Assembly: GCF_000340215.1 (NCBI RefSeq)
Contig: NW_006921532.1
Span: forward strand, 10,949,764-11,013,763
DNA length: 64,000 nucleotides
Direction of reading: 5' to 3'
Origin: Pseudocercospora fijiensis CIRAD86
Lineage: Eukaryota; Ascomycota; Dothideomycetes; Mycosphaerellales; Mycosphaerellaceae
Every line of letters begins with the position of its first letter. Positions within the stretch are counted from its first letter, which is position 1. A model generated the notes under the pieces. It had not been told where the DNA came from. It ran no database searches and saw nothing but the letters and a program-made list of their open reading frames with translations. This document shows, one piece after another, positions 38,990 to 52,653 of this stretch. The position numbers were made by a program, and so were the translations under genes.

Positions 38990-41900
38990 CTAATACTTAT
39001 CTAACAACTCAGTTATGTCTTTAAAAGAGTCTTTAGCTTCCTACGAGTCCCATTTAGGTAAATAGCCTTGCTACCTTAGCAGGTACTCCTTCTTGCCTTG
39101 CCTAGTGCGATACTATAGGATACGTTCTATAGACTACAGCTCCTTACTATCCGCTAGTATGTCTTCGTGTTCTATAGGGGCTTTATCCCCTTCGCGTAGG
39201 TAGTACGGCTTAAGGAGGGATATATAGAAGGTATTATAGATAGTGTAATAAGGTAGGAGCTATAACTAATAGGCCTATACGGAGGAGCCTTTAACTTCTC
39301 GAATGCGGAATGGGCTAATGTATCTTAGTACGAGCTTGGGCCTTGTTTTGCCGTTAGGTAATAGGTGCTTGCGGATGCGGAGGTTCTTAGTACTTAGTAT
39401 AACTATATCGCCTTGTTTAAAGGTTATCGGCGTATAGTGCTTGTCGTAGTAGGTCTTTTAGTACTCTTAAGCCTTTGTTAACTTCTCGGCTATCTTAGTA
39501 TAGATTTCTCGCATCTTCTAGACACGTTCTATTGCCGCTAGTGTCTCTAGTACTTGACGCGCTTCCCTTTCCTTACGCTCGGCCTCGAGCGAGGTAAATA
39601 GATCTTATAGTAACGCGGCGTTTTGACCCATTATAGCTATATATAGTGAAACCTTAGTTAATAAGTGTACACTGTTGTTGTATACGAATTCTATAGGCTG
39701 TAGGAGATTAACCCAATCCCTAGGATTCTCGTTAATGTAACTGCGTAGGTACTGCTATAGGGTAGCATTCTGCCTCTCTGTTTGACCGTTAGTCTATAGA
39801 TAGAAGGCTATTAATAGCCGATGCTTTAGTCTTAGCTATAGGCATATTTCGCTCTAATAGTGCGATGTGAATGTCGTGCCCCTATCGGAGACTATCCCCT
39901 TAGGGGTTCCCTAATAGGTATAGAAGATGTTAGTCTATAGCGCCTCTACTATATTAATAGCAGTCCAATCCTTCCGCGCCGGGATATATCGAGCGCCTTT
40001 AGTAAATCGATCTACTATAATAAGGATAGCATTATACATATCCTTGCTACCCCTACGCTTAGTAGGAGGAAGGCCTATAATAAAGTCCATTATAAGCTTA
40101 GTAAATAGCTTCTTTAGAACAGGGAGTAAAGACAACTCGCTAAATAGTAAGTGCTTTAGTGCTTTAACTCGCTAGCATACTATATAGGTCTACATATACT
40201 CCTTTATATGCCGCTTACTATTTGGCTAGTAGTATGTACGCGATAGTAACTCGTGCGACCTCTCTATGCTATAGTAACTAGCGAGCTTACTATTATAGTG
40301 CCTCTTTAAAAGCTCTTATCTAATCGATTGTTTAGCGGGGATATAGTATCTGCCCTTGAACTTTAAGTAACCTTTATCGTCGATCGACTAATTGTTGTTA
40401 CTCTTACCGGATCGAGTCGCCCGCCTACTTACAAGCTTATTAATGCGCTCGATAGCAAAGGCGTCCCTCTACTAAGCACGTAACAGCTCATCTATAAACG
40501 ATTAACTATCCCCGTTTGCAAGGTTATTTAATAGCACCTATACTATCGAACGAGGTATGCATTATATATATCTAATAGCACTAGCAGCCGGATTAACTGC
40601 AACCTCTTCTATAGTGCTATCGCTATAGATAGCAATATCTTTAATCGAGTCGTTATAGCTCGAGCGATCTACGTCCTTTTTAACGTATACTAGAAGAACG
40701 ACAACTCCGCTATAGTATTTATTGCCGCCGCGGGGTCCGGAAGTCCGCTTATCCTACGCCTGCTTTATAGCAAGGTCTATAGCAATCTTATACTGCAGGG
40801 TTAGAAACAGAGAATTAATATATTAGGTTTCGCTATCGTAATTAGGTCGCCTCGATAGGCTATTAGTAGGGTTACTTACGCCTAGCCGATGTAATATATT
40901 AAAATCGAACCCAGCGAGGTAGACGGCCTATCTAGCCTATCGACCTATAACCCTAGTAACCTTCGTAATTCTACGGAGGTTGTTATAGTCCGTATAGACC
41001 TAAACAGGGTACTAAGCACTATCGAGATAATAGCGCTAGTGCTTAAAGGCTTCTACGATTGCTAGGAGCTCTTGCTTATAGGTCTCGTACCGACGTTCTA
41101 CGTCGATTATCTTCCGTAAAAAGAAGGCAATCGGGTGCTAATAGGTATTATTAGCCTACTGTGACATAATAGCTAATACAGCGAACTGTGAAGCGTCAGT
41201 TTCAATTCGGATCTGCTTACTTAGCACGAAATAGTGCAACAAGGGGACATTAGTAAAGCGTTGCTTTAGGCCGTTAAAAGCGGCTTGTGCTCTGTTAGTC
41301 TATTTAAACTCTCTAGTTAGGTTGGCCTTAGTTTTAGTAAGCTCAGTTAGGGGCATTATATGCTGTAAATAGCCCTTAATAAACCGACGGTAGAAGTTAG
41401 CAAAACCTAGGAATAATTGAAGCTCTTTAATAGACGTAGGAACGGGCTATTTAGTAATTGTTTTAATCCGGTTAGGATTAGCCTTAACACCCTCGGTTGA
41501 AATAAGAAAGCCAAGGAATAACACCTCCTTAGTAGCAAAGGTGCATTTAGAAGGCTTGCAATACAAGCTATAGGCCCTTAGGCGATCGAGTACCTTACGG
41601 ACTATAGCCTAGTATTCCGCAATATTAGGAGAGTATGTATAAACTAGGATGTTATCTAGGTAAACTATACAGAGGTGATCTAATAGGCCTAATAGGGCCC
41701 GATTAATATAGGACTAGAATGTAGTAGGGGCATTAGCTAGCCTAAATAGTATAACTAAGTACTTAAAATAGCTATAGCGAGTACGAAAGGCTGTCTTCTA
41801 TTTATCGCCCTTGCGAATACGGATGCGGTAATAGGCGTCCTTAATGTCTAATATAGTATAGTAGTAGGCACTAGAAAGGCGATCGAGGGTCTTATTAATA

Positions 41901-42648
41901 AGAGGAAGTAGACAACGATCTTTAATAGTAACAGCATTAAGTCTACGGTAATCGACGTATAACCGTAGGCTACTATCCTTCTTTAGAACAAATAGGATTA
42001 GTGCACTAGCAGGGCTGTTACTATACCGAATGCGACCGTTAGCTAGATTTTCCTCTAGGTACTTACGCAATATAGCGAGCTCTCGTTTACTAAGGTTGTA
42101 GAGGGGACTAAAAGGAACCTCTTTGCCCTCTATAATGTTAATCTTATAATCTGTCTCCTTAAATATAGGCAATGTCGATGCTAAGTAGTGTTTAAATATA
42201 TTAATGTAGGTCTCTCGAATAGGCTCTAGTATACGTTCGAGCTAATTAGAGTCTATGCCGTTAGGGGGCATAGGTTCTTCGTTATCCCTACCGAGCAGGT
42301 CGGCAGTCGGATTAGCTAGGGTTAGGTTGCTAATAAATAGGACCCTAATATCGTTAGGGCACTCGCTAATATTAATGTGTTTAATATCCTCTTTCCTAGC
42401 GATTCTAAATCGCTACTATTAGCTGCCTAGGTCTATAACTATAGCGTAGTACTTAAGAACAGGGTTGCTAATAACAATATCGGATAGGAGGCTGTCTATG
42501 TCTACCGCGTAGGCAGTAAAGTTTAGTAGGCGTTCATTTCCGAGGTCGTCTTTTAGAACTATAGGAACATAGTAGGCTCTATAGGTCAAGTGCCGAGCGT
42601 TATTAAACTAAGCAAGAGTTAGCAGGTCAGTCTTCGGCAGTTATCGAA
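38990..42648 (-). pseudogene. Gypsy pol: reverse transcriptase, RNase H, integrase, chromodomain
   Basis: Reverse transcriptase at about 41,600-42,180 with SPASALILFVLKKDSSLRLY, VDYRRLNAVTIKD and the catalytic box VYLDNILVY instead of YLDD. RNase H follows to about 40,900. Integrase at about 40,300-39,650 has SKRHIKEYM..C, then MDFIIGLPPTKRRG and VSDRGTTF. The chromodomain at about 39,020-39,150 reads KKEYLLR-QGYLPKWDS-EA. Stops are Gln- and Trp-type. The reading frame at the right end is cut by the hAT insertion. Confidence 0.9.
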
Positions 42649-42656
42649 GGTCTAAT

Positions 42657-42730
42657 TAGACCCCGCAGTGGTTCGGGTTGGTTTGGTTTGGTTTGCTAAG
42701 CCGAAACTCTGGTTTGGTTTGGGTTGGTTT
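42657..42730 (+). repeat. hAT left terminal inverted repeat and subterminal GGTTTG repeats
   Basis: The 20-bp TIR is followed by several GGTTTG/GGGTTGGTTTG units. The CA and TG in the TIR have not been mutated. Confidence 0.9.
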
Positions 42731-43294
42731 GCTAAGCAACTACATAAGTAGCTGGTTCGAACCATATAATTTATCGGTTTTTAAGAAGTGTACGAATGTA
42801 TACGTAGCTTCAAGCAAGCCCTTTGTAAGACTCAGCAGTGTGGCCGGCAGCGTAGCCGGCATTTTTAGTCCTTAGTACTTATAGAATTTTCGAATCCTAC
42901 TCAGGCTACGTAGTTGTATAAAGGTACTTATATGACCTCAAATCCATAGACAATTAGCTAAGGGCACTAACCAATCAAAAGCATACACACATATAAGGCA
43001 TTATAGTTTAGTTCGGAAACTGCACTCCTTAGGTATGAACTTCATCCTTTCGTTTACGGTTCAATTCCCTAACTGCTTAGCAGAATGTCTTTATCCAGAT
43101 CTAGGTAGAACTCATCGATTTCCCTAGAAGTCCTCCTCCTTAAGAAGTTTATACACTTTCCTACCGAACTATTCGACAATATCAAGTACTAGGATAGCTC
43201 CTCCCTCGGTATCGGTATAGTATATAAAAGAGCTATAAGGCAGCTCTGCAGAACGTTCCACTAGTCACTCGCTATACTAAGGCCGAATGCTAGT
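42731..43294. other. hAT left spacer
   Basis: Contains the first GCCGGC cluster (42,841-42,861). Less strongly RIP-mutated than the rest of the island. No coding assignment. Confidence 0.4.
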
Positions 43295-43585
43295 TCGTTC
43301 CTTAGAACTCTTAGTTATTTGGGAGATATAAAGGGTAGGGCAGGTAGTAACTTCGTGTTGTATAAGGAGGTAGAGGCTGCTATAGAAGAGGCCTTCAACC
43401 TATAGAAGATAGTAAAAGATATAGAGGCAGCTATAGGTCTAGGTACCTAGTTGAATTTCTAGTAGGTAGAGTATAAGGATATTTAGAGGGAGTATTAGGT
43501 AGAGTTACGAAGGCAGGTGTATAATATGCTCTAGAAAACAGGGATAGTGCCTATAACTATGACTATTAGGCTCTTCAACCTTCCT
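43295..43585 (+). pseudogene. unknown cargo exon of the hAT element
   Basis: A plus-strand frame reads as protein with only Gln-type stops: FLRTLSYLGDIKGRAGSNF, then YKEVEAAIEEAFNL, IVKDIEAAIGLGT and ELRRQVYNML. It is helical and charged, with no family I recognise. It is followed at 43,671 by a GCCGGC cluster in the same orientation, which in the other genes marks introns or spacers. Confidence 0.4.
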
Positions 43586-43948
43586 TATTTTTCCCTGTTT
43601 TCTTTTTATAAAAATCTAAACTAATACAAATCAACCGGAATGTCTATCTTCTTTTAGTTCTTTGAAAAACCTAGCAGCGTAGCTAGCAGCGTAGCCGGCA
43701 GCGTGGCCGGCAGCGTAGCCGGCCTTTTTACTCCTTAGTACTAACGGGATTTTAGGAGACTTCTATTCCGTACGGCCAATAAAGCATACTGTACTATGTA
43801 TATATACTTAGAGAGTATTTAGAGCGCGGTATGCAGCGCCGTATAATAGCGGCTCATTTCGTATATAGAAAAGCTTATAGACGACACTACGAATATCCTT
43901 CCTACTAGTATATCTATCCTATCTAGCACTATCTCGAATATAGATATT

Positions 43949-44636
43949 CTAGCCTTTTAGAATCTAATCGAGTGCTTTAAAATCCTTGTCTATAATCGTT
44001 ATACGCTTCGCGTAGATAGCTATAAGGTTGACCGCTAAAATAGTATTAGTATAGTCCGAAAAGAGGTAGAAGAGAAATATACATTCGAAGATACGAACCA
44101 GGTAGGCTTCTATAGCCTCTTAAAGGGCGCCTATCGCGGAGGCTTAGAAGCGAAGGTCTATTCTATAATCCTAGGCAATTTCGCGAATAAGTCGTTAGAA
44201 AGGAGTTTTGCGGATTAGGAGCTTAGAACTCTTCTAATACTGCCGAATCTCACGGAGGGCTACGGCTAAAGAAGGATTAGTAAAAAGACAGTAAGAATGC
44301 CGGCTACGCTGCCGGCTACGCTACCGGCTATAAATAGGACTTACTTCCTAGGCGCTATCGACGCTTCGCACGATTGCTACTAGTAGCAGAAGCGCTAGTT
44401 GTCGTCTTGCGTAGAGCCTTGCCCGCCGTTGTCTTGCGCGGAGCCTTGCCCGCCGTTGTCTTACGCGGAGCCTTGCTCGCGACGCCCTTTCTAGCACCGG
44501 AGCTAGCGGCAGTAGTAGCAGCTATCTTACGTTGATGTACTATACTCGTTCTATTATTTCCGATCTTATTGCGACCCGCAGAAGTACTAGGTCCCTTCTT
44601 ACGAGGCGTCGTAACTTAGTTAAGTGGACTCGCTAT
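43949..44636 (-). pseudogene. histone H3-like protein A carried by the hAT element
   Basis: Three exons fit exactly (44636-44345, 44265-44083, 44034-43949; 186 codons plus stop) with GTAAGT/GTATAT donors, a TACTAAT branch point in each intron and TTTAG acceptors. The first splice restores LGTVALREIR, the H3 alpha-N entry. The fold continues TPFQRLIREIA, DYRIDLRFQASAIGAL (canonical DFKTDLRFQSSAI), EAYLVRIFE and, after the second splice, AIYAKRITIIDKD (canonical AIHAKRVTIMPKD). The N-terminal tail is about 97 residues, far longer than the usual 38, and holds three 27-bp repeats coding for GKAPRKTTA, resembling the K14-K18 region of the H3 tail. The presumed start is ATA, an ATG changed by RIP; internal stops are all former Gln codons. 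The histone call is very strong. Whether it once acted as a core H3, a variant or an inhibitor cannot be told. Confidence 0.85.
44401..44481 (-). repeat. three 27-bp repeats in the histone tail
   Basis: Three consecutive 27-bp units, each coding for a near-identical AGKAPRKTT-type nonapeptide. Confidence 0.85.
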
Positions 44637-46294
44637 TATAAAAGTCGTCGAATTAAGGAAAAAAGTGCGTTACGAAGGTGTACGAAGGCGCGCGCGGAGC
44701 GAGGGTATTACGGAGGTAGTAGATATAGAGCGTAGAGGTATAGGTATCGATGCGAAGGTTGAATATAGCGGTAGTGTCGCGGTATCGCTAGGCAATAGAG
44801 TAAGCTTCGCGCAAGCCTACATTATAGTAACGTTAGAGCAAGGAAAGAAGGCAGGCACGGCTAAAAAAGGTAGGCACGGCTAAAAAAGGCAGGTACGGCA
44901 GACTTTGAAATATAGCCGGCATATATAGCCGGCATAGTAATAGGCGAAAGCCTCCTTTTAATAAATAGCCGGCGTAATAATAGTATCCTACTATAGTATA
45001 GATATTCTTTAGTAATGCCTTTACTAGCTATAGTAATCTTATAAGTAACCTAGGCCTATTGCTAGTAAATATAAGAAATATTAGGTAGGCTATACTAAAC
45101 AAGCTAGTCATTTAGTAGGAAAAGGCCTACTACCGTCTCTATATGCCGGCTACGAGTGCCGGCTACGAGTGCCGGCTATCGCTCTAAATTCAACTCCGCC
45201 CTATCTCGGAGGCTGAGGTACCGAGCGGAAACCCTATAGCTTATATTCACTCGGTTGTCGCGGAGCGCTTATAGGTGAGGTATTAGAAAAGAGTATAAAA
45301 AGTACGAGAAGAGTATCCTAGGATATAGGTCGTAAGTGAATAAGAGTAGCACGCCTAGTTATTTATATAGTACGTTACTCTATACGACTAAGAGCCTATA
45401 TTATCTCGTGCTTCGCTTATAAGACCTCGACTCTACTAATATACTGTTATTCTCCTGCTCGGTCGCTGTCTTAAATCTTCTTCGAGTTGCCGGACTTAGT
45501 GCGCATCTGTAGCTATGCAATAGCGCTACGTATTATAGAGAATCAACTCCGCCGTATCTCGAAGGCTAAGGTACCGAGCGGAAATCCTATAGCTTATATT
45601 CACTCGGTTGTCGCGGAGCGATTATAGGTAAGGTATTAGAAAAGAGTATAAAAAGTACGATAAGAGCATCCTAGGATATAGGTCGTAAGTGAATAAGAGT
45701 AGCACGCCTAGTTATTTATATAGTACGTTACTCTATACGACTAAGAGCCTATATTATCTTATGCTTCGCTTATAAGACCTCGACTCTACTAGTATACTAT
45801 CGATCTCCTCCTCGGTCGCTAATACGCTATCTTAATTCTTCTTCGAGTTGCCGGACTTAGTGCGTATCTATAGCTATGCAATAGCGCTACGCATTATAGA
45901 GAATTTCTCGTTGAAGTTTCTCTCTCGTAGGCTTGCTATCTGCCTCGTAGTACAGAGGATTAAAGTGCTGATACTAAAGAATCTCCTTATAGTTAGGATA
46001 CTAGGGCTCCTTAGGACCTTTGTGTTTTAGGTCTAAATAGAGACGTATTATAAACGTTCTATCGCCCTTTCGCTTACTACCCGCTAGGTCGCGATATGCG
46101 AAGAAACTAATCTAAATGTAGCTCGTCTCTGTAAGAGCCGGGTGAATATAGAGCGCTAGGTTTCTACTTCGTACCTTAGATTTAGGGACGGCGCGGAGAT
46201 AAAATTAGAAATGTAGCCGGTACCTATAGCCGGCAAAAGGATGCGAAAATGGGCCTCCTCCTAGGTTAATCTAACGACTAAATACAATTTCCAA
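44637..46294. other. hAT spacer between the two histone genes
   Basis: Holds a 353-bp tandem duplication (45,188-45,903) and GCCGGC clusters at 44,911-44,973, 45,143-45,179 and 46,213-46,236. No gene identified; short protein-like stretches with Gln-type stops occur inside the duplicated unit on the minus strand. Confidence 0.5.
45188..45903. repeat. 353-bp tandem duplication
   Basis: The unit beginning CAACTCCGCC at 45,191 recurs at 45,544 with a small number of differences, mostly transitions. Both copies contain the same long stretches (for example TCACTCGGTTGTCGCGGAGC). Confidence 0.9.
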
Positions 46295-46955
46295 CTAATC
46301 CGCTATAAACCGACGCCGAATTTTAGCTAGAAGCTGCATATCTTTATTTTGAAGAGTAATCCGCTTCGTATAGATAGCAAGGAGGTTTGAAAGCTTAAGC
46401 TCGGTTACGAGAAATGCCTCCGTAGCTTCCTAAAGAGCACTAATCGCCTTAGTTTGAAAGCTTAAGCTCGGTTACGAGAAATGCCTCCGTAGCTTCCTAA
46501 AGAGCACTAATCGCCTTAGCCGTAAATCGCATACTAGACCGAAAATCTAATGTAATTTCTCGGACGAGTCGCTAGAAGGGAGTCTTAGGGATTAAAAGCT
46601 CGGTCCCTCTTTTGTTTTAGAAAAGCCGGATCTAGCGAAGGGCAATAGTACCTAGTTTAAAGCGCCGCTTCTTTATCGTCGAGTCCTGCCTTGTTCCCTT
46701 TCTTTTAATAGAAAGATAACTTTTCTTTACGATAGTCTTCGTCCGCCTACTCTTTTTAGCCTTCTCCTATCTACCTATAGCCTTCTTGTTTTTCGGTACT
46801 GTTTTCCGAGGAACCCCCTTCCTTCGTATATACTGCGGAGAGCCTTGCTCTTCCGATATCTCGTTCTCGCTACGGTCTCCCTATACTTAGCTTGCTTTAC
46901 CCTTGCCCTTTAGCCTCTAAAGATATTTATCTACGCGTTTAGGCGACGAGGGCAT
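46295..46955 (-). pseudogene. histone H3-like protein B (CENP-A/Cse4-like C-terminus) carried by the hAT element
   Basis: Intact ATG at 46955 (MPSSPKRVDKYL), a 115-residue Lys/Arg-rich tail, then KRRFKLGTIALR-IRLF (H3: RFKPGTVALREIRRY), ELLIPKTPF-RLVREI, DFRSSMRFTAKAISAL, EATEAFLVTELKLSNLLAIY and TKRITLQNKDMQLLAKIR. The last helix, with NLLAxxxKRIT..KDMQL, is closer to yeast Cse4 than to canonical H3 (NLCAIHAKRVTI.PKDIQLARRIR). The CENP-A two-residue insertion in loop 1 is absent. No intron is needed. An exact 67-bp tandem duplication (46,386-46,519) within helix 2 shifts the frame; removing one copy leaves 198 in-frame codons. Other stops are former Gln codons. The gene lies 3' of the transposase on the same strand. 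Confidence 0.85.
46386..46519. repeat. exact 67-bp tandem duplication inside histone gene B
   Basis: Two identical 67-bp units, 46,386-46,452 and 46,453-46,519. Length is not a multiple of three. Confidence 0.95.
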
Positions 46956-47449
46956 ATCGGTAGGATCTAGAAAATTAATAAGCATATAATCGTAAGGAGA
47001 CATTAATGCTTCTTACCTTCTAGAACAAATAGTCTTCTATTAAACCGCCTTATTGGGTTATCGTTAGATTCGAATAAAGGATGGTAGCTTAAGGAAGGGG
47101 AGGCAGCCGGCTTAGGAAGGCCCGAAGAGCCGAATCCTTAAGGCATGTTTGTCTTTAAGAATATAGGGAAAGGGAAGAAGGAGAGGAAGAGCGAACAGAG
47201 AATTAGAAATAGTCCGTAGGTAAGCGGGGTCGGTTGCTATAGCAACTAGTCTGTTTAGGTCCTAGGAATTCGAAACACATTTCGGACATATACCGGCTAT
47301 ATACGCCGGCTATATTACCTTATACGTAAACGCTTCGTCTCCTTAAAGCTGCTCTAAGCCTGTATACGTTTCCGCTTCTCGACCCGGTATCGCCTTCTGC
47401 CTCCGCCCTCCTCCTCTTCGTTATCGCTAATTAGGGTTTCGCTTAGACT
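46956..47449. other. hAT spacer between histone B and transposase
   Basis: No coding assignment. GCCGGC cluster at 47,290-47,313. Confidence 0.45.
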
Positions 47450-50050
47450 AAATTTCGTATTCTCTTCGCGCTCCTAGGTTTCTTCGATCTTAAGGTTTTC
47501 CAATTCCTCGATCAACTCCTTTAGTATAATCTTTAGTAACCTACCTTAGCGATTCTAGTAGAGGAGATAGTATCGGAATACTATAATAGATTCGAAGGTA
47601 GTAGGCGAGTATGTTCGATTAAAGCGGCCCTAGTAACGAGCGATACTAAAAGACCTCTTATAGCCTATACCTACGCTCGGGATAGCGAGGACGTCCCGAG
47701 CGACCGACGCTATCGTTAGAAACTTAGGCTCTAACCGCTACTATATAGCGAGAATATCGTCTCCGAATTCGTCTAGAAGACCGGTAAGATCTAGAGATTA
47801 TTAGCCCTCTTTCCGAGCCTACGGGTTTGTACTTACTCGCGCGCCGATAGAGATCGAACTCTTCTTTATTTACTTTAGTAGTTGCTTCCTCTTCTGCTTC
47901 TACTTCCTACCTACGAAACAGATATAATATCGGAGCCTTCTAAACCTTCTTTTTCTTTGTAGGAGCTGCATTTAGACTAGTTTCTTTCCGACGCTCGTAG
48001 AACATCTTTTCTAGAATAGTCTAGTAATGCTTCGGCTACACCTCGTCCGCCTTCTATTCCGGCCTCTACTAGTATATATCCTTTTCTACCGGGTTAAGCA
48101 AGCACGCAACGCTATAGATATCCCCGAACGAGTCAAAGGTAGTACTATAATATTTATACAACTTAGCATAGGAGGTATCTATAGCTTTCGTTATAGCTAC
48201 TTTCTAGGGAACGCTCTTCCTAGCTAGCTTAGCTACGGTTTCCTCGAGCTCGTTAAAGAGCTAGTTGTAGTACGCAAAGACAAGGTAGATCGTCGGTCCT
48301 CGGGTTCTTCTAATCGTAGTAGTAACCTTCGCGTAATGCTTACTAATATCGACGAGATACTCTGCTTAGCGCTATTCGGCGGCGGTAAGGCCGAGCTACT
48401 CAATACCCTCGGAACTCTAATAGATCTCGAGAGCGGTACGTAAAGTACATCCCCTCGTAACTATATAGAAAGTCGAATCGAACCGGGTCTTAACGTCTTA
48501 GGTAAAACGGAGTAGGCGCTAAGGAGGCCGCTTTTGCTATCGCTTATTCTATACGATATTCTAGGTATCGGTTTTAGGGCGCTCGATTAGGTTCTTTTAA
48601 ATAGCCTCGAATCGGTTATATCTCTATAAGCTCGAGTTCGTATATATTGCTAGACGACGAAGCTAGAGAAAAAGAGTTAGAACTATACTAGGTTGCCGGC
48701 TATAGGTGCCGGCTACGGACAAAAGTTATACCTTATACAAAACGAGAGCGAGGCTCTCTGCCTTATCCCGTCTTATTACTATAATAAGTTTCTCGACTTT
48801 CGACTTTGCTTTATCCTTATCTAGGATCTTCTATTAGTCGTCGTTTAATAGTGCAATTTTAAGCGTCTTAAAGAGGGCTCGGATCGCGATTTGAACTATA
48901 TAAGCGAGGTAGGGAAACTTCTATAGGGATGCAACTAGCAACGACGTCGGCTCCGATTCAATAGGGCTAGGGCTATCAATAGGCTCCTCTTTATCGTTAT
49001 TATCGTGCGTATTGTCGTACGTATCCGGAATCGTAGCGAGCTTAATATTCGGAAGATTAAGCTAGATTATAGACCTTATAATCTCCTCTACGCACTCGAC
49101 CCTATCGATACAATTAGTGATTTTAAAGACATATGCGAGTGAATTATATATACAACGCCTTATGTAATGTTCGATTATTACTAGCGTTGTCCGTAGTAAT
49201 CGAGATCAGTTTCGTTGTTACGCTAACCCTATCTATTACCGCATAGATAAGCTTCGCTATATCCTTACTAGTATAGGAACCTAGAATTTCAGGGAATCCG
49301 ATCATTAGTTCCTAGAGTTTCTAATCCGAATTGATAAAGTATAGTATAATCGAGAGGAAGGAGGCTCTTATAGTCCGGCTTAACTAGCTATCGATAGTAA
49401 TAGCTACTCGGCGAGTATTACGGAGGATCTCCCGAATGTCGTCTAACGTAGCCTCTTTGTTCTTTTCGAATATAACACGCTAGGTTGTCGCGCCGAGAAA
49501 TAGGGGAGGGTAGTTTGTAAGATATAGGTATATCTTCTATATAGACTCCCTTTCGTAGAAGTCTTCCGGAAGACCGTTTGTAGCTAGCATTTCGTTTGCT
49601 AGTTGCTTGAAGTCTTCGGGGGAGAAATCGATAGCCTTCAATCCTAGAGCTTCCTTAAGCGTAGCCTATAATAATTAGCTAGATCTCTACGGTTGATTTA
49701 GGTAGCCGGAATCTATAGCCGGCAGCTATAGCCGGCAGCTGTAGCCGGCATTTTAGAAGATATACCTCTTTCTAGAACGCTATATCTATATTAACTCTCC
49801 TCTCTCCTTAAGATTCCCGATACCGTTTAGAATAGAGATAGTTCGTAGGCGATGAGTTCCTATCCCCTAGTTTCGGGTGTTTTAAGATTAAACCGTAGAA
49901 GTTGTAGACAATTACTAGTTAACCTTTAAGTCGAGAAGTCGTATAACGGTGCAATACCCCCTCTATAAAGAACTTCTAGAATATATCCGTTCGCTCCTTA
50001 CTCCCCTATCGCATCGAGTACTTCCGGAGTTTACACTCCTTCGAACGTAA
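47450..50050 (-). pseudogene. hAT transposase
   Basis: Catalytic core reads RVAITIDS (first Asp, near 49,390), then ELMIGFPEILGSYTSKDIAK and KLISITTDNASNNRTLHKAL (second block near 49,180), the standard hAT RNase-H-fold arrangement. The C-terminal dimerisation domain is LDEFGDDILAIQ, ASVARDVLAIPSVGIGYKRS and TTFESIMVFRYYL at about 47,560-47,820. Introns at 49,765-49,687 (79 nt) and 48,731-48,663 (69 nt) each contain a GCCGGC cluster and read out cleanly. Stops are former Gln or Trp codons. The N-terminus with a BED-type finger was not resolved; coding sequence probably continues upstream of 50,050. Confidence 0.8.
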
Positions 50051-50693
50051 GTATAAAGGGAACTATATCTTATAGACCTATTAATTGAACTGCTCTATAT
50101 ACTCGGGTTTCTAAAGATACGCCTAGCTAGCCTTTTCGAAGATTTCCGGGTTGATACTCGATGTTCTTATATCTCCGAACAACCTTCTACTTAGACTCCG
50201 TAAAGGTAAGGACTAGGTAGTAGTACCCTATAATGAATTCCTACTACTAGGATTCGGAGAGGATAAATCTAGCCCTAATCGTGATCTAGGACTCGATAGG
50301 CTCGAAGGTAAGTATACGACCTCCTCTCGACGTTGTCGCAATCTCGCTCGTATACTAGACTGTTTCGACTGTCGTCTCGTTGTTACCCTTCCTAGTATAG
50401 CGCCTAGTATATATACAATATCGGTCGGTATGTTTTAAGGTTTCGTACGGTAAGGTAAGGACTTAGGAGTAGTAGATATATACTAGTAGCTGTAGAGAAA
50501 CACCCTTTCTTTTATAGCATCGTATCGTTAGGAACAGCTAGGCAGTAAATAGCTAGCTACCTTTTTTTTTTGTTTCCTAGCCACCTAACTACTAGATTTT
50601 TTTTCCTAGCTACCCTAGCTAGCCTAACTACTAGAATTTCTTTCCTAGCTACCCTAACTACCTGAATTTTGCCTTCTATACGGCGGCTCTCTC
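50051..50693. other. hAT internal region, probably transposase 5' part
   Basis: Protein-like minus-strand stretches with Gln-type stops continue to about 50,400. From 50,540 to 50,670 the DNA is low-complexity (CCTAGCTACCCTAACTA repeats and a T run). Confidence 0.4.
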
Positions 50694-52075
50694 CTACTGA
50701 CGGAACCGAGCTACTGTACCTAACGAATCTAAGCTCGTTTTTAGTCTTAATCTATCCTCTTTCGGTATAAGACACTCGACAAGCAAATGCTTAGGCCGAG
50801 TCTAACTACGAAACCTAAGACTAACTAATAGCTCTATCAACCAATCCTGATCCTCGAACTCCTTCCGCTTCTTAGTAAAGACCTTAAAGAGCGCTCGAGC
50901 TTCTTCGGGTACCTACGGAGTAGTCGAGATAAAGCCGTATCGCTGAAATAGGTAATCCTTCGGAGGCTTATATAGAGATTTAGAGAATTCTAACGCCAAC
51001 CTATCCTACTAGCAGCTTAGATTCCGGATACAAGCCCTCTCTGCCTTAGTAAAGATTTTATATAGCAGTAGCACTCTACCTTCGAGAAACGCTTTCTGTT
51101 TAACTGTTAGTATCTGCCGGCTACGAACGCCGGCTACATATGCCGAGCATAGAATAATTACCTATACCCCTTCCTCCTATAGTAACACTTCTACCGTCCC
51201 TAGATACCTAGCCCCGATCGCATTAATCGCAAGCTACTTTGCCTTTATAGACGTAAAGGCTTCGCTCTAATACTAATAAAGAAACTTCTACTCTATATCG
51301 AGGATATAAAGACGACTAGTCTCGATTCCAATCCTTACTAGCTTTTCGTAGTAGCTTTGACTATAATTTTCTAGATTGATAGGACTTATACCTTAGCCCT
51401 TTACTAGTATCTCGTCTCTTTAACTGTGCTCGATCCACTTCTAGCGCTTATCGTCTATAGCGTTAGGCCCTAAGACTGCACCTGTTACTAGATCGACGTA
51501 TAGTATCTCCTCGCTTTTTTCAGTTCCTTTATTCGTAGCATTAAGCTCTATCGCGGCATCCTAAACTCTAGTATTATTGTTCTCGGCTATCTAAACATCT
51601 CCGTTACTATCGGTCGTATCGATAGAGGTAGCGACTATAGGTCTAAATGCTATTAGTTAACGTGTTAAAGAAAAATATGCCGGCTATAGCTACCGGCTAC
51701 GGCTGCCGGCTATAGCTGCTAGCTACGGCCGCTAGCTAGATTAACTTACGCTGCTAGAACTTTACGCTCGAAAACTAGCCGCAATTCTTTCCTCCTCTTA
51801 GCCTTCTCTTAGGTTGTCTTCTTATTCTAACCTTCACTTTTTTCTATAGGCGCTAGCTATCGATAGAATGCCTCATTCCGCGCCTTTCTTCTCTTATCCT
51901 TAGCTCTTTTATCCTTATCTATCTTGTCCTTTCTCTCGCGGTCTCGTACGGAATTCTTCTTCGTAGAGTACTCCTCTTTAGTCTTACGCTTTTTAGTTAG
52001 ACGCTTAGGCAAAACAAACTCGCGGTCTTTAGTTCTATCTTCTGTTTAGCGCGCGGCGCGCTTCTCTCTTGCTAT
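50694..52075 (-). pseudogene. unknown cargo gene of the hAT element (basic, charged N-terminus)
   Basis: Starts at an ATA (former ATG) at 52075 followed by AREKRAAR. Exon 1 (52075-51750) encodes a highly charged region, for example KRLTKKRKTKEEYSTKK and DRERKDKIDKDKRAKDKRRK. A 107-nt intron (51,749-51,643) and a 66-nt intron (51,161-51,096; GTAATT donor, TACTAACAG branch point) each carry GCCGGC clusters. The later exons read smoothly with only Gln-type stops (SPINLENYS, YYEKLVRIGIETSRLYILDI, LAINAIGARYLGTVEVLL, LYKPPKDYLFQRYGFISTTP) to a TAG at 50,694. I do not recognise the family. Nuclear localisation is likely from the basic region; function unknown. Confidence 0.55.
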
Positions 52076-52544
52076 TATAAGGGAAAGGGGCGGGGGCGCA
52101 GCGTATAGTAGTTGTTATCGGTATAGGTATAGAGGAAGAAGTTGAAAGTATAAGAATATCGCGAAGCCCTAATTGTTACCGCCTACGTGACGTTATATAG
52201 GTAAGCTTTCGCAACTACGGCAACTACGCCCCGGCAATAGCAACTACGCCCTAGCAACGGCAACTACGCCCTAGCAACGGCAACTACGCCCTAGCAACGG
52301 TAATAAAGCGTAGTAAATACAACCTAGTAACTATTATAGCCGGCAATCGTAGCCGGCAGTCGAATAAGAGTGTCCTTATAGCAAAACCACGCCCTAGTAA
52401 CGGCAACCACGCCCTAGCAACGGCAACCACGCCTAGTAAATGTAACAGAGTTACTATTATAGCCGGCAATCGTAGCCGGCAGTCGAATAAGAGTGTCCTT
52501 ATAGTAAAACCAATACAGTCTCTAGTTCAAACTAGGAATCTATA
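52076..52544. repeat. minisatellite and duplicated block at the hAT right end
   Basis: A 20-bp unit GCAACTACGCCCTAGCAACG repeats about four times at 52,215-52,300, with relatives at 52,385-52,435. A 55-bp block containing TTATAGCCGGCAATCG and AATAAGAGTGTCCTTATAG occurs twice (52,330-52,390 and 52,452-52,510). Confidence 0.85.
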
Positions 52545-52645
52545 TGGTTCGAAAAAACCAAACCGGAACTAGGGAGCTAGTTCGCCGCTAAGAAACCAAA
52601 CCATATACGTTTGGTGGTTCGGAAACCGAACCACTGCGGGGTCTA
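52545..52645 (-). repeat. hAT right terminal inverted repeat and subterminal repeats
   Basis: Exact inverted copy of the left 20 bp, preceded by CCAAACC units. An additional internal palindrome, GGTTCGG-AAA-CCGAACC, sits next to the TIR (52,615-52,632). Confidence 0.9.
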
Positions 52646-52653
52646 GGTCTAAT

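What the first reader, a model, noticed from the sequence alone, without database searches (positions are those of the whole stretch)
43949..44636. A histone H3 gene with a long repeated tail inside a DNA transposon
Seen: a three-exon gene within the hAT boundaries whose splices rebuild the H3 fold (LGTVALREIR, TPFQRLIREIA, EAYLVRIFE, AIYAKRITI). The tail is about 97 residues and contains three GKAPRKTTA repeats. Established: core histone genes are single- or low-copy host genes and are not standard transposon cargo. Inference: the element captured and diversified an H3 gene, possibly to influence chromatin at its own copies (for example to escape silencing) or at the target. The gene is RIP-dead in this copy, but other genomic copies may be intact.
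Basis: partly seen in the sequence, partly recalled or inferred. Interest (0 to 1): 0.95.

Follow-up and report, generated by a model that had tools for sequence, protein, structure and literature searches.

The report
Dead histone-carrying transposon, already published
This is a mutation-killed copy of a known fungal jumping gene that carries histone H3 genes; the new detail is that it carries two different histone genes, one of which was conserved about as well as the jumping enzyme itself.

Summary
Window 42657-52645 is a hAT transposon (23-nt inverted ends, exact 8-bp target duplication) whose minus strand holds a three-exon H3 gene ("A", 44636-43950) with a 97-codon first exon and three GKAPRKTTA-type repeats. 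It is not new: Dhillon et al. 2019 (PMC6710886) describe this family in Pseudocercospora fijiensis, 784 H3-like copies in 471 hAT elements, all killed by RIP. Among the 150 best-scored candidates no transposon copy was free of stops.

New here: (1) the element carries two long-diverged H3 paralogues, A and B. (2) A has two introns; the published "16-residue insertion" fits a 48-nt intron, against the published intronless-transcript capture. (3) B is an H3 fold with a long N-terminal extension. (4) In a RIP-blind comparison of element subfamilies B's fold is about as conserved as the transposase (3.8% v 4.3%) and well below intergenic DNA (16.2%); A changes three times faster but its indels stay in frame. 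So the histones look like genes of the element rather than dead freight. What they did to chromatin is inference. Known finding, moderately interesting refinement.

The parts
42657..52645 (.). hAT element, 9,989 bp, with inverted ends 42657-42679 and 52623-52645 and target duplications 42649-42656 and 52646-52653 (GGTCTAAT)
44345..44636 (-). gene A exon 1, 97 codons, long tail; first codon ATA in 39 of 39 copies (ATG lost to RIP is presumed)
44397..44477 (-). three 27-nt repeats (SKAPRKTTA, GKAPRKTTA, GKALRKTTT)
44266..44344 (-). gene A intron 1 (79 nt here); one codon from host H3 intron 2, same phase
44083..44265 (-). gene A exon 2, first part of the H3 fold
44035..44082 (-). gene A intron 2, 48 nt; the 16-residue 'insertion' of the 2019 paper
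43950..44034 (-). gene A exon 3, end of the H3 fold; the true 3' end of the gene is not certain
46295..47130 (-). gene B, second H3 gene: fold about 46295-46651, N-terminal extension beyond it (outer limit approximate)
46385..46518 (.). 67-nt tandem duplication that breaks the frame of gene B in this copy only (1 of 16 copies aligned)
47816..49644 (-). hAT transposase remains, in pieces of two frames; one database relative with the DUF659 domain

Best explanation
The window holds a RIP-dead copy of the published H3-carrying hAT family of P. fijiensis. Shown: the element carries two H3-derived genes, A (long repeated tail, two introns) and B (N-terminally extended), side by side in each subfamily looked at; B's fold was held about as conserved as the transposase, and A's indels between subfamilies stay in frame. 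Inferred: while the element was active both made variant H3 proteins that pair with host H4 and enter host chromatin, most likely helping the element to be expressed or to move in spite of heterochromatin, with A as the fast-changing one. I put about 0.35 on that chromatin role; the confidence given here is for the family identity and for two real genes. In this genome RIP appears to have ended it.
For: Family: 772 and 780 first-look candidates against 784 in print, host H3 on contig 6, same anatomy, exact 8-bp duplications in the window and 7 of 8 others. Genes: GTAAGT, branch-like motif and TAG in 39 of 39 copies for intron 1; 48 nt, branch-like motif and TAG in 39 of 39 for intron 2, with GT in 20 and AT in 19. 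RIP-blind (purine/pyrimidine) differences between the window group and the most distant subfamily: B fold 11/290, transposase 74/1719, A fold 31/268, intergenic 159/983; control: transposase positions 1+2 38/1147 against position 3 36/572, p 0.004. In-frame indels in A and B 5 of 5 and 6 of 7, against 6 of 16 and 8 of 23 in the DNA between them, p 0.02-0.03, the window-only duplication set aside. A against B: positions 1+2 0.17, four-fold sites 0.33. A and B each form one clade.
Against: Between subfamilies codon positions 1+2 of A and B are not significantly below position 3 or four-fold sites; A against B has a median p of only 0.065, and host H3 comparisons include change on the host side. 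In the nearer comparison (L047, L048) the unassigned right part is as conserved as B (15/970 against 6/290). Intergenic rates may be raised by misalignment. Several exon 1 indels are changes in repeat number; with the window duplication counted p is 0.06-0.07. In B, one codon is TAG in 8 and GAG in 7 of 15 copies, which RIP alone does not give. No transcript or protein data; p values are not corrected for the number of tests. The species is inferred, not named by a tool.
Confidence: 0.75

Rival explanations
1. Passive cargo (the published reading): a host H3 transcript was captured once, rode along in the hAT element and was destroyed by RIP; it never worked for the element.
For: Every transposon copy scored has stops; A's rate between subfamilies is near that of non-coding DNA (31/268 against 159/983 intergenic and 86/937 on the right); subfamily codon tests do not show selection on A or B.
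Against: Introns in A; B's fold as conserved as the transposase; in-frame indels; two paralogues kept in 9 of 9 ten-kb loci.
Confidence: 0.3
2. The H3 proteins served transposition directly, for instance as a targeting or packaging partner of the transposase, rather than silencing.
For: B's constraint matches that of the transposase; B has a long extension without known relatives.
Against: No direct evidence of any kind; the extension of B is shifted in frame in the window group and in L047/L048 relative to L041 and kin.
Confidence: 0.1
3. The genes come from the centromeric histone CENP-A and aimed the element at centromeres.
For: Many of the named best hits of B are CENP-A/CSE4 proteins.
Against: Loop 1 has H3 length in A and B, unlike host CENP-A; CENP-A forms a separate starred group in the tree, away from A and B; host CENP-A shares fewer residues with A and B than host H3 does with A (40 and 36 against 43 of 66 sites; for B, H3 gives 37 and 35 of 66, about the same).
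Confidence: 0.05

Closest known systems
H3-carrying hAT family of Pseudocercospora fijiensis and relatives (Dhillon et al. 2019, PMC6710886)
   Same: Same kind of genome (about 74 Mb), copy number, hAT ends and 8-bp duplication, one or two H3-like stretches per element, RIP, host H3 on the sixth contig or scaffold. I take it to be the same family.
   Different: The paper reports truncated, intronless copies from a captured transcript and a 16-residue insertion; here gene A has two introns and a 97-codon first exon, B has a long extension, and A and B are separate old paralogues. The window element is 9,989 bp against 9.5-9.9 kb in print.
H3L genes in a hAT element of Pyrenophora tritici-repentis (Manning et al. 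2013, PMC3538342; passages only)
   Same: A hAT element with an H3-like gene between its inverted ends; ESTs reported there for H3L.
   Different: 5.6-kb and 2.3-kb elements, 26 nearly identical genes, mostly intact; [quoted passage not shown]
Histone-like protein of Manila clam xenomavirus (P0146)
   Same: An H3 fold annotated in a virus record.
   Different: A separate branch in the tree; no shared element known. Other viral histones are recalled, not searched.

Membership tests
hAT DNA transposons | short terminal inverted repeats | tested here: met
   23 nt, 96%
hAT DNA transposons | 8-bp target duplication | tested here: met
   window exact; 7 of 8 others exact
hAT DNA transposons | hAT transposase | tested here: inconclusive
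   Pfam found no transposase in six frames with X at stops; one database relative at E 1.7e-4, 26% identity over 19% of the query, whose precomputed domains include PF04937 and PF05699 (the names DUF659 and hAT dimerisation domain for these accessions are recalled). The paper reports DUF659 in the family.
P. fijiensis H3-hAT family (PMC6710886) | copy number, H3-like stretches and RIP as published | tested here: met
   772 and 780 first-look candidates, 150 scored each time; RIP indices
P. fijiensis H3-hAT family (PMC6710886) | identity of TIR letters with the published figure | not testable with these tools
   figures are not held
P. fijiensis H3-hAT family (PMC6710886) | no introns in the H3-like stretches (published claim) | tested here: not met
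   gene A, two introns in 39 of 39 copies aligned. I read this as an error in the description rather than a different family.
Histone H3 | H3 histone fold | tested here: met
   Pfam Histone A 1.7e-27, B 1.4e-25 with X at stops
CENP-A | longer loop 1 and place in the CENP-A clade | tested here: not met
Working variant histone | expression and entry into nucleosomes | not testable with these tools
   no transcript or protein data here

The most novel reading that the evidence does not exclude
A hAT transposon lineage kept two of its own variant H3 genes as working parts: a conserved, N-terminally extended H3 (B) and a fast-changing H3 with a long repeated tail (A), used to alter host chromatin in the element's favour during a long contest with heterochromatin and RIP.
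Probability: 0.35. Interest if true: 0.8.

Novelty: already known. Interest (0 to 1): 0.4.

Why it matters
The family itself is published. If the constraint on gene B and the splicing of gene A hold up, the published story of a housekeeping gene caught by accident and destroyed becomes one of transposon-encoded histones kept by selection, which would make it testable whether a mobile element counters silencing with nucleosomes of its own.

Tried and rejected
Intact transposon copies: none among the 150 best-scored of 772 or of 780 candidates; the rest were not scored. CENP-A origin: not supported. Processed pseudogene of host H3: does not fit A (introns). The 48 nt as coding: less likely, since removal restores exact H3 length and the stretch has a branch-like motif and TAG end in 39 of 39 copies; but it shows 0 of 48 purine/pyrimidine changes between subfamilies, and A's introns together change less than its exons (1/126 against 56/530, p 4.6e-5), which I cannot fully explain. 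Diversifying selection on A: not shown, as its rate is not above intergenic DNA. Pfam on six-frame readings found Histone in two minus-strand frames and nothing above a cut-off on the plus strand; transposase pieces gave no credible Pfam match. The first RIP-blind codon tests had little power; the transposase control and the rate comparison were added later.

Rows dropped: L009 (the window again) and short A rows of L003 and L005, and L045 from the B alignment by a length filter; L047 from the A rows (motif search failed); the window from the B rows (duplication); L003, the same place as L041, from one B group. The tree used 23 of 159 listed database proteins, chosen by me. The B list used for pairing was 38 places that I pasted from 150 rows.

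Full report
What is there. The window lies in a 73.9-Mb, 30-contig genome that I take for a fungus from its content and RIP. The finding sits inside a 9,989-bp unit, 42657-52645, with 23-nt inverted ends and GGTCTAAT on both sides. Eight further elements, taken from the ten best gene A matches after the window, were checked at their ends: 7 of 8 have both ends and an exact 8-bp duplication; in one the right end was not found in the stretch fetched. The unit is strongly RIP-mutated (TpA/ApT 1.76 against 0.55 in window 1-25000).

Gene A. On the minus strand, 44636 to 43950, three exons (292, 183, 85 nt) and two introns (79 and 48 nt) rebuild H3 without a gap in the fold. With X at stops Pfam Histone matches at 1.7e-27, and host H3 is 60% identical over 121 residues. 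Stops in the fold lie mostly at codons where host H3 has Gln or where other copies show CAG or CAA, as RIP predicts; some do not (for example 4 of 38 copies at a host Lys codon, 5 at a host Asn codon and 6 at a host Ser codon), and may be RIP on replaced codons. The tail repeats resemble H3 GKAPRKQLA; their number differs between elements. Before them the tail reads ARKG where H3 has ARKS around Lys 9; that this matters for methylation is inference from recalled biochemistry.

Gene B. A second H3 gene lies at about 46295-47130. It has no intron in the fold, two extra residues early in the fold and, in the locus held as L003 and L041, about 158 residues before the fold, against 44 in host H3, in a frame interrupted only by TAG or TAA. 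In the window group and in L047/L048 a one-base difference shifts the outer part of that extension. The window copy also has a 67-nt duplication. No relative or domain was found for the extension. A and B occur together in 9 of 9 ten-kb loci; 35 of 40 A places have a B 1.5-3 kb away among 38 B places that I pasted from the 150 rows, and the window, one of the five misses, has one by direct reading.

It is published. Dhillon et al. 2019 (PMC6710886; I read parts 1-5 of 7, and passages) describe 784 H3-like copies in 471 hAT elements of P. fijiensis, 20-bp TIR, 8-bp TSD, full-length elements of 9.5-9.9 kb, one or two H3 stretches each, all dead by RIP, with the original H3 on scaffold 6. Here the first look gives 772 and 780 candidates and the host H3 lies on contig 6. 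I take the species to be P. fijiensis; no tool names it. The Pyrenophora case (PMC3538342, passages only) is the earlier and, by the 2019 paper, independent example, with mostly intact H3L genes and ESTs. Searches for further papers listed none that revisits the gene structure (a 2021 review, PMC8616336, was seen in the listing only); the library holds open-licence papers only.

What the paper did not report. It calls most copies truncated, finds no intron sequence, infers capture of a transcript, and treats a 16-residue difference between the two copies of an element as an insertion mutation. The 48 nt are exactly 16 codons. They begin GT in 20 copies and AT, a RIP-type change, in 19, contain a branch-like motif and end in TAG in 39 of 39 copies aligned, and their removal gives exact H3 length. 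Intron 1 has GTAAGT, a branch-like motif and TAG in 39 of 39 and lies one codon, in the same phase, from host H3 intron 2. So gene A is better explained by capture of genomic DNA, or by intron gain in a live gene, than by a transcript. The copies are relatives, so 39 of 39 is not 39 independent cases; the signals do survive among subfamilies that differ at about 10% of exon sites by transversion.

Age and constraint. A tree of 39 rows (7 A, 7 B, host H3, host CENP-A, 23 chosen database proteins) puts A in one clade and B in another, joined to each other at 92/89, not a starred branch, with CENP-A proteins as a separate starred group. Both share changed residues at H3 positions 110 and 113 (Ile or Leu, and Tyr, for Cys and His; numbering recalled). 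To be blind to RIP I compared purine/pyrimidine states only. Window group against the most distant subfamily (L041, L042, L043, L045, L046): transposase 74/1719, with positions 1+2 at 38/1147 and position 3 at 36/572 (p 0.004), so the test sees selection where it should; B fold 11/290; A fold 31/268; A exon 1 26/262; A introns 1/126; A-B intergenic 159/983; unassigned right part 86/937. Against L047 and L048: transposase 25/1722 (10/1149 and 15/573, p 0.005), B fold 6/290, A fold 17/268, A exon 1 15/232, A introns 2/114, intergenic 100/1058, right part 15/970. Thus B is held about like the transposase, though in the nearer comparison so is the unassigned right part. A changes about three times faster than B, yet A and B together have 5 of 5 and 6 of 7 indels in frame against 6 of 16 and 8 of 23 between the genes (p 0.023 and 0.025; window duplication set aside; with it 0.074 and 0.060). 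Several of A's are changes in repeat number. Between A and B, positions 1+2 differ at 0.17 and four-fold sites at 0.33 (median p 0.065); host H3 against A 0.15 and 0.33 (median 0.015), against B 0.17 and 0.36 (median 0.038); with all third positions the single-pair tests give p 0.055 (H3-A), 0.17 and 0.042 (H3-B), 0.027 and 0.020 (A-B). Host comparisons mix in change on the host side. Between subfamilies the codon positions of A and B do not differ significantly. No p value is corrected for the number of tests.

Reading. The most economical account is a hAT lineage that took up an H3 gene, duplicated it early, and kept both copies as genes: B under transposase-like constraint, A changing quickly in frame. 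That they acted as variant H3 in host chromatin is inference from the fold; that this served to blunt silencing is a guess, with some support from the altered tails and from recurrence of H3 capture in another hAT family. All copies scored here are dead.

Noticed in passing
44035-44082: Intron 2 of gene A has no purine/pyrimidine change in 48 sites between three subfamilies while the exons beside it differ at about 10%; the cause is not clear.
   Followed up: partly
50000-51700: Further minus-strand stretches with protein-like readings lie upstream of the transposase; no Pfam match in frames with X at stops. Possibly a third gene or the start of the transposase.
   Followed up: no
42680-52622: GCCGGC-rich 12-nt satellite units sit in intron 1 of A and at many other places of the element, in both orientations and varying numbers.
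   Followed up: no
41798-42607: The element's left flank reads on the minus strand like a reverse transcriptase of an LTR retrotransposon (motif recalled), so the hAT element seems to have jumped into one.
   Followed up: no
L039 (G000:C5:605000-608200): Host CENP-A gene with one intron inside the fold; used as a control.
   Followed up: yes
P0147: A 279-residue H3-fold protein of Pestalotiopsis sp. 9143b with a long charged C-terminal tail and a very long branch in the tree; worth checking for a mobile context.
   Followed up: no
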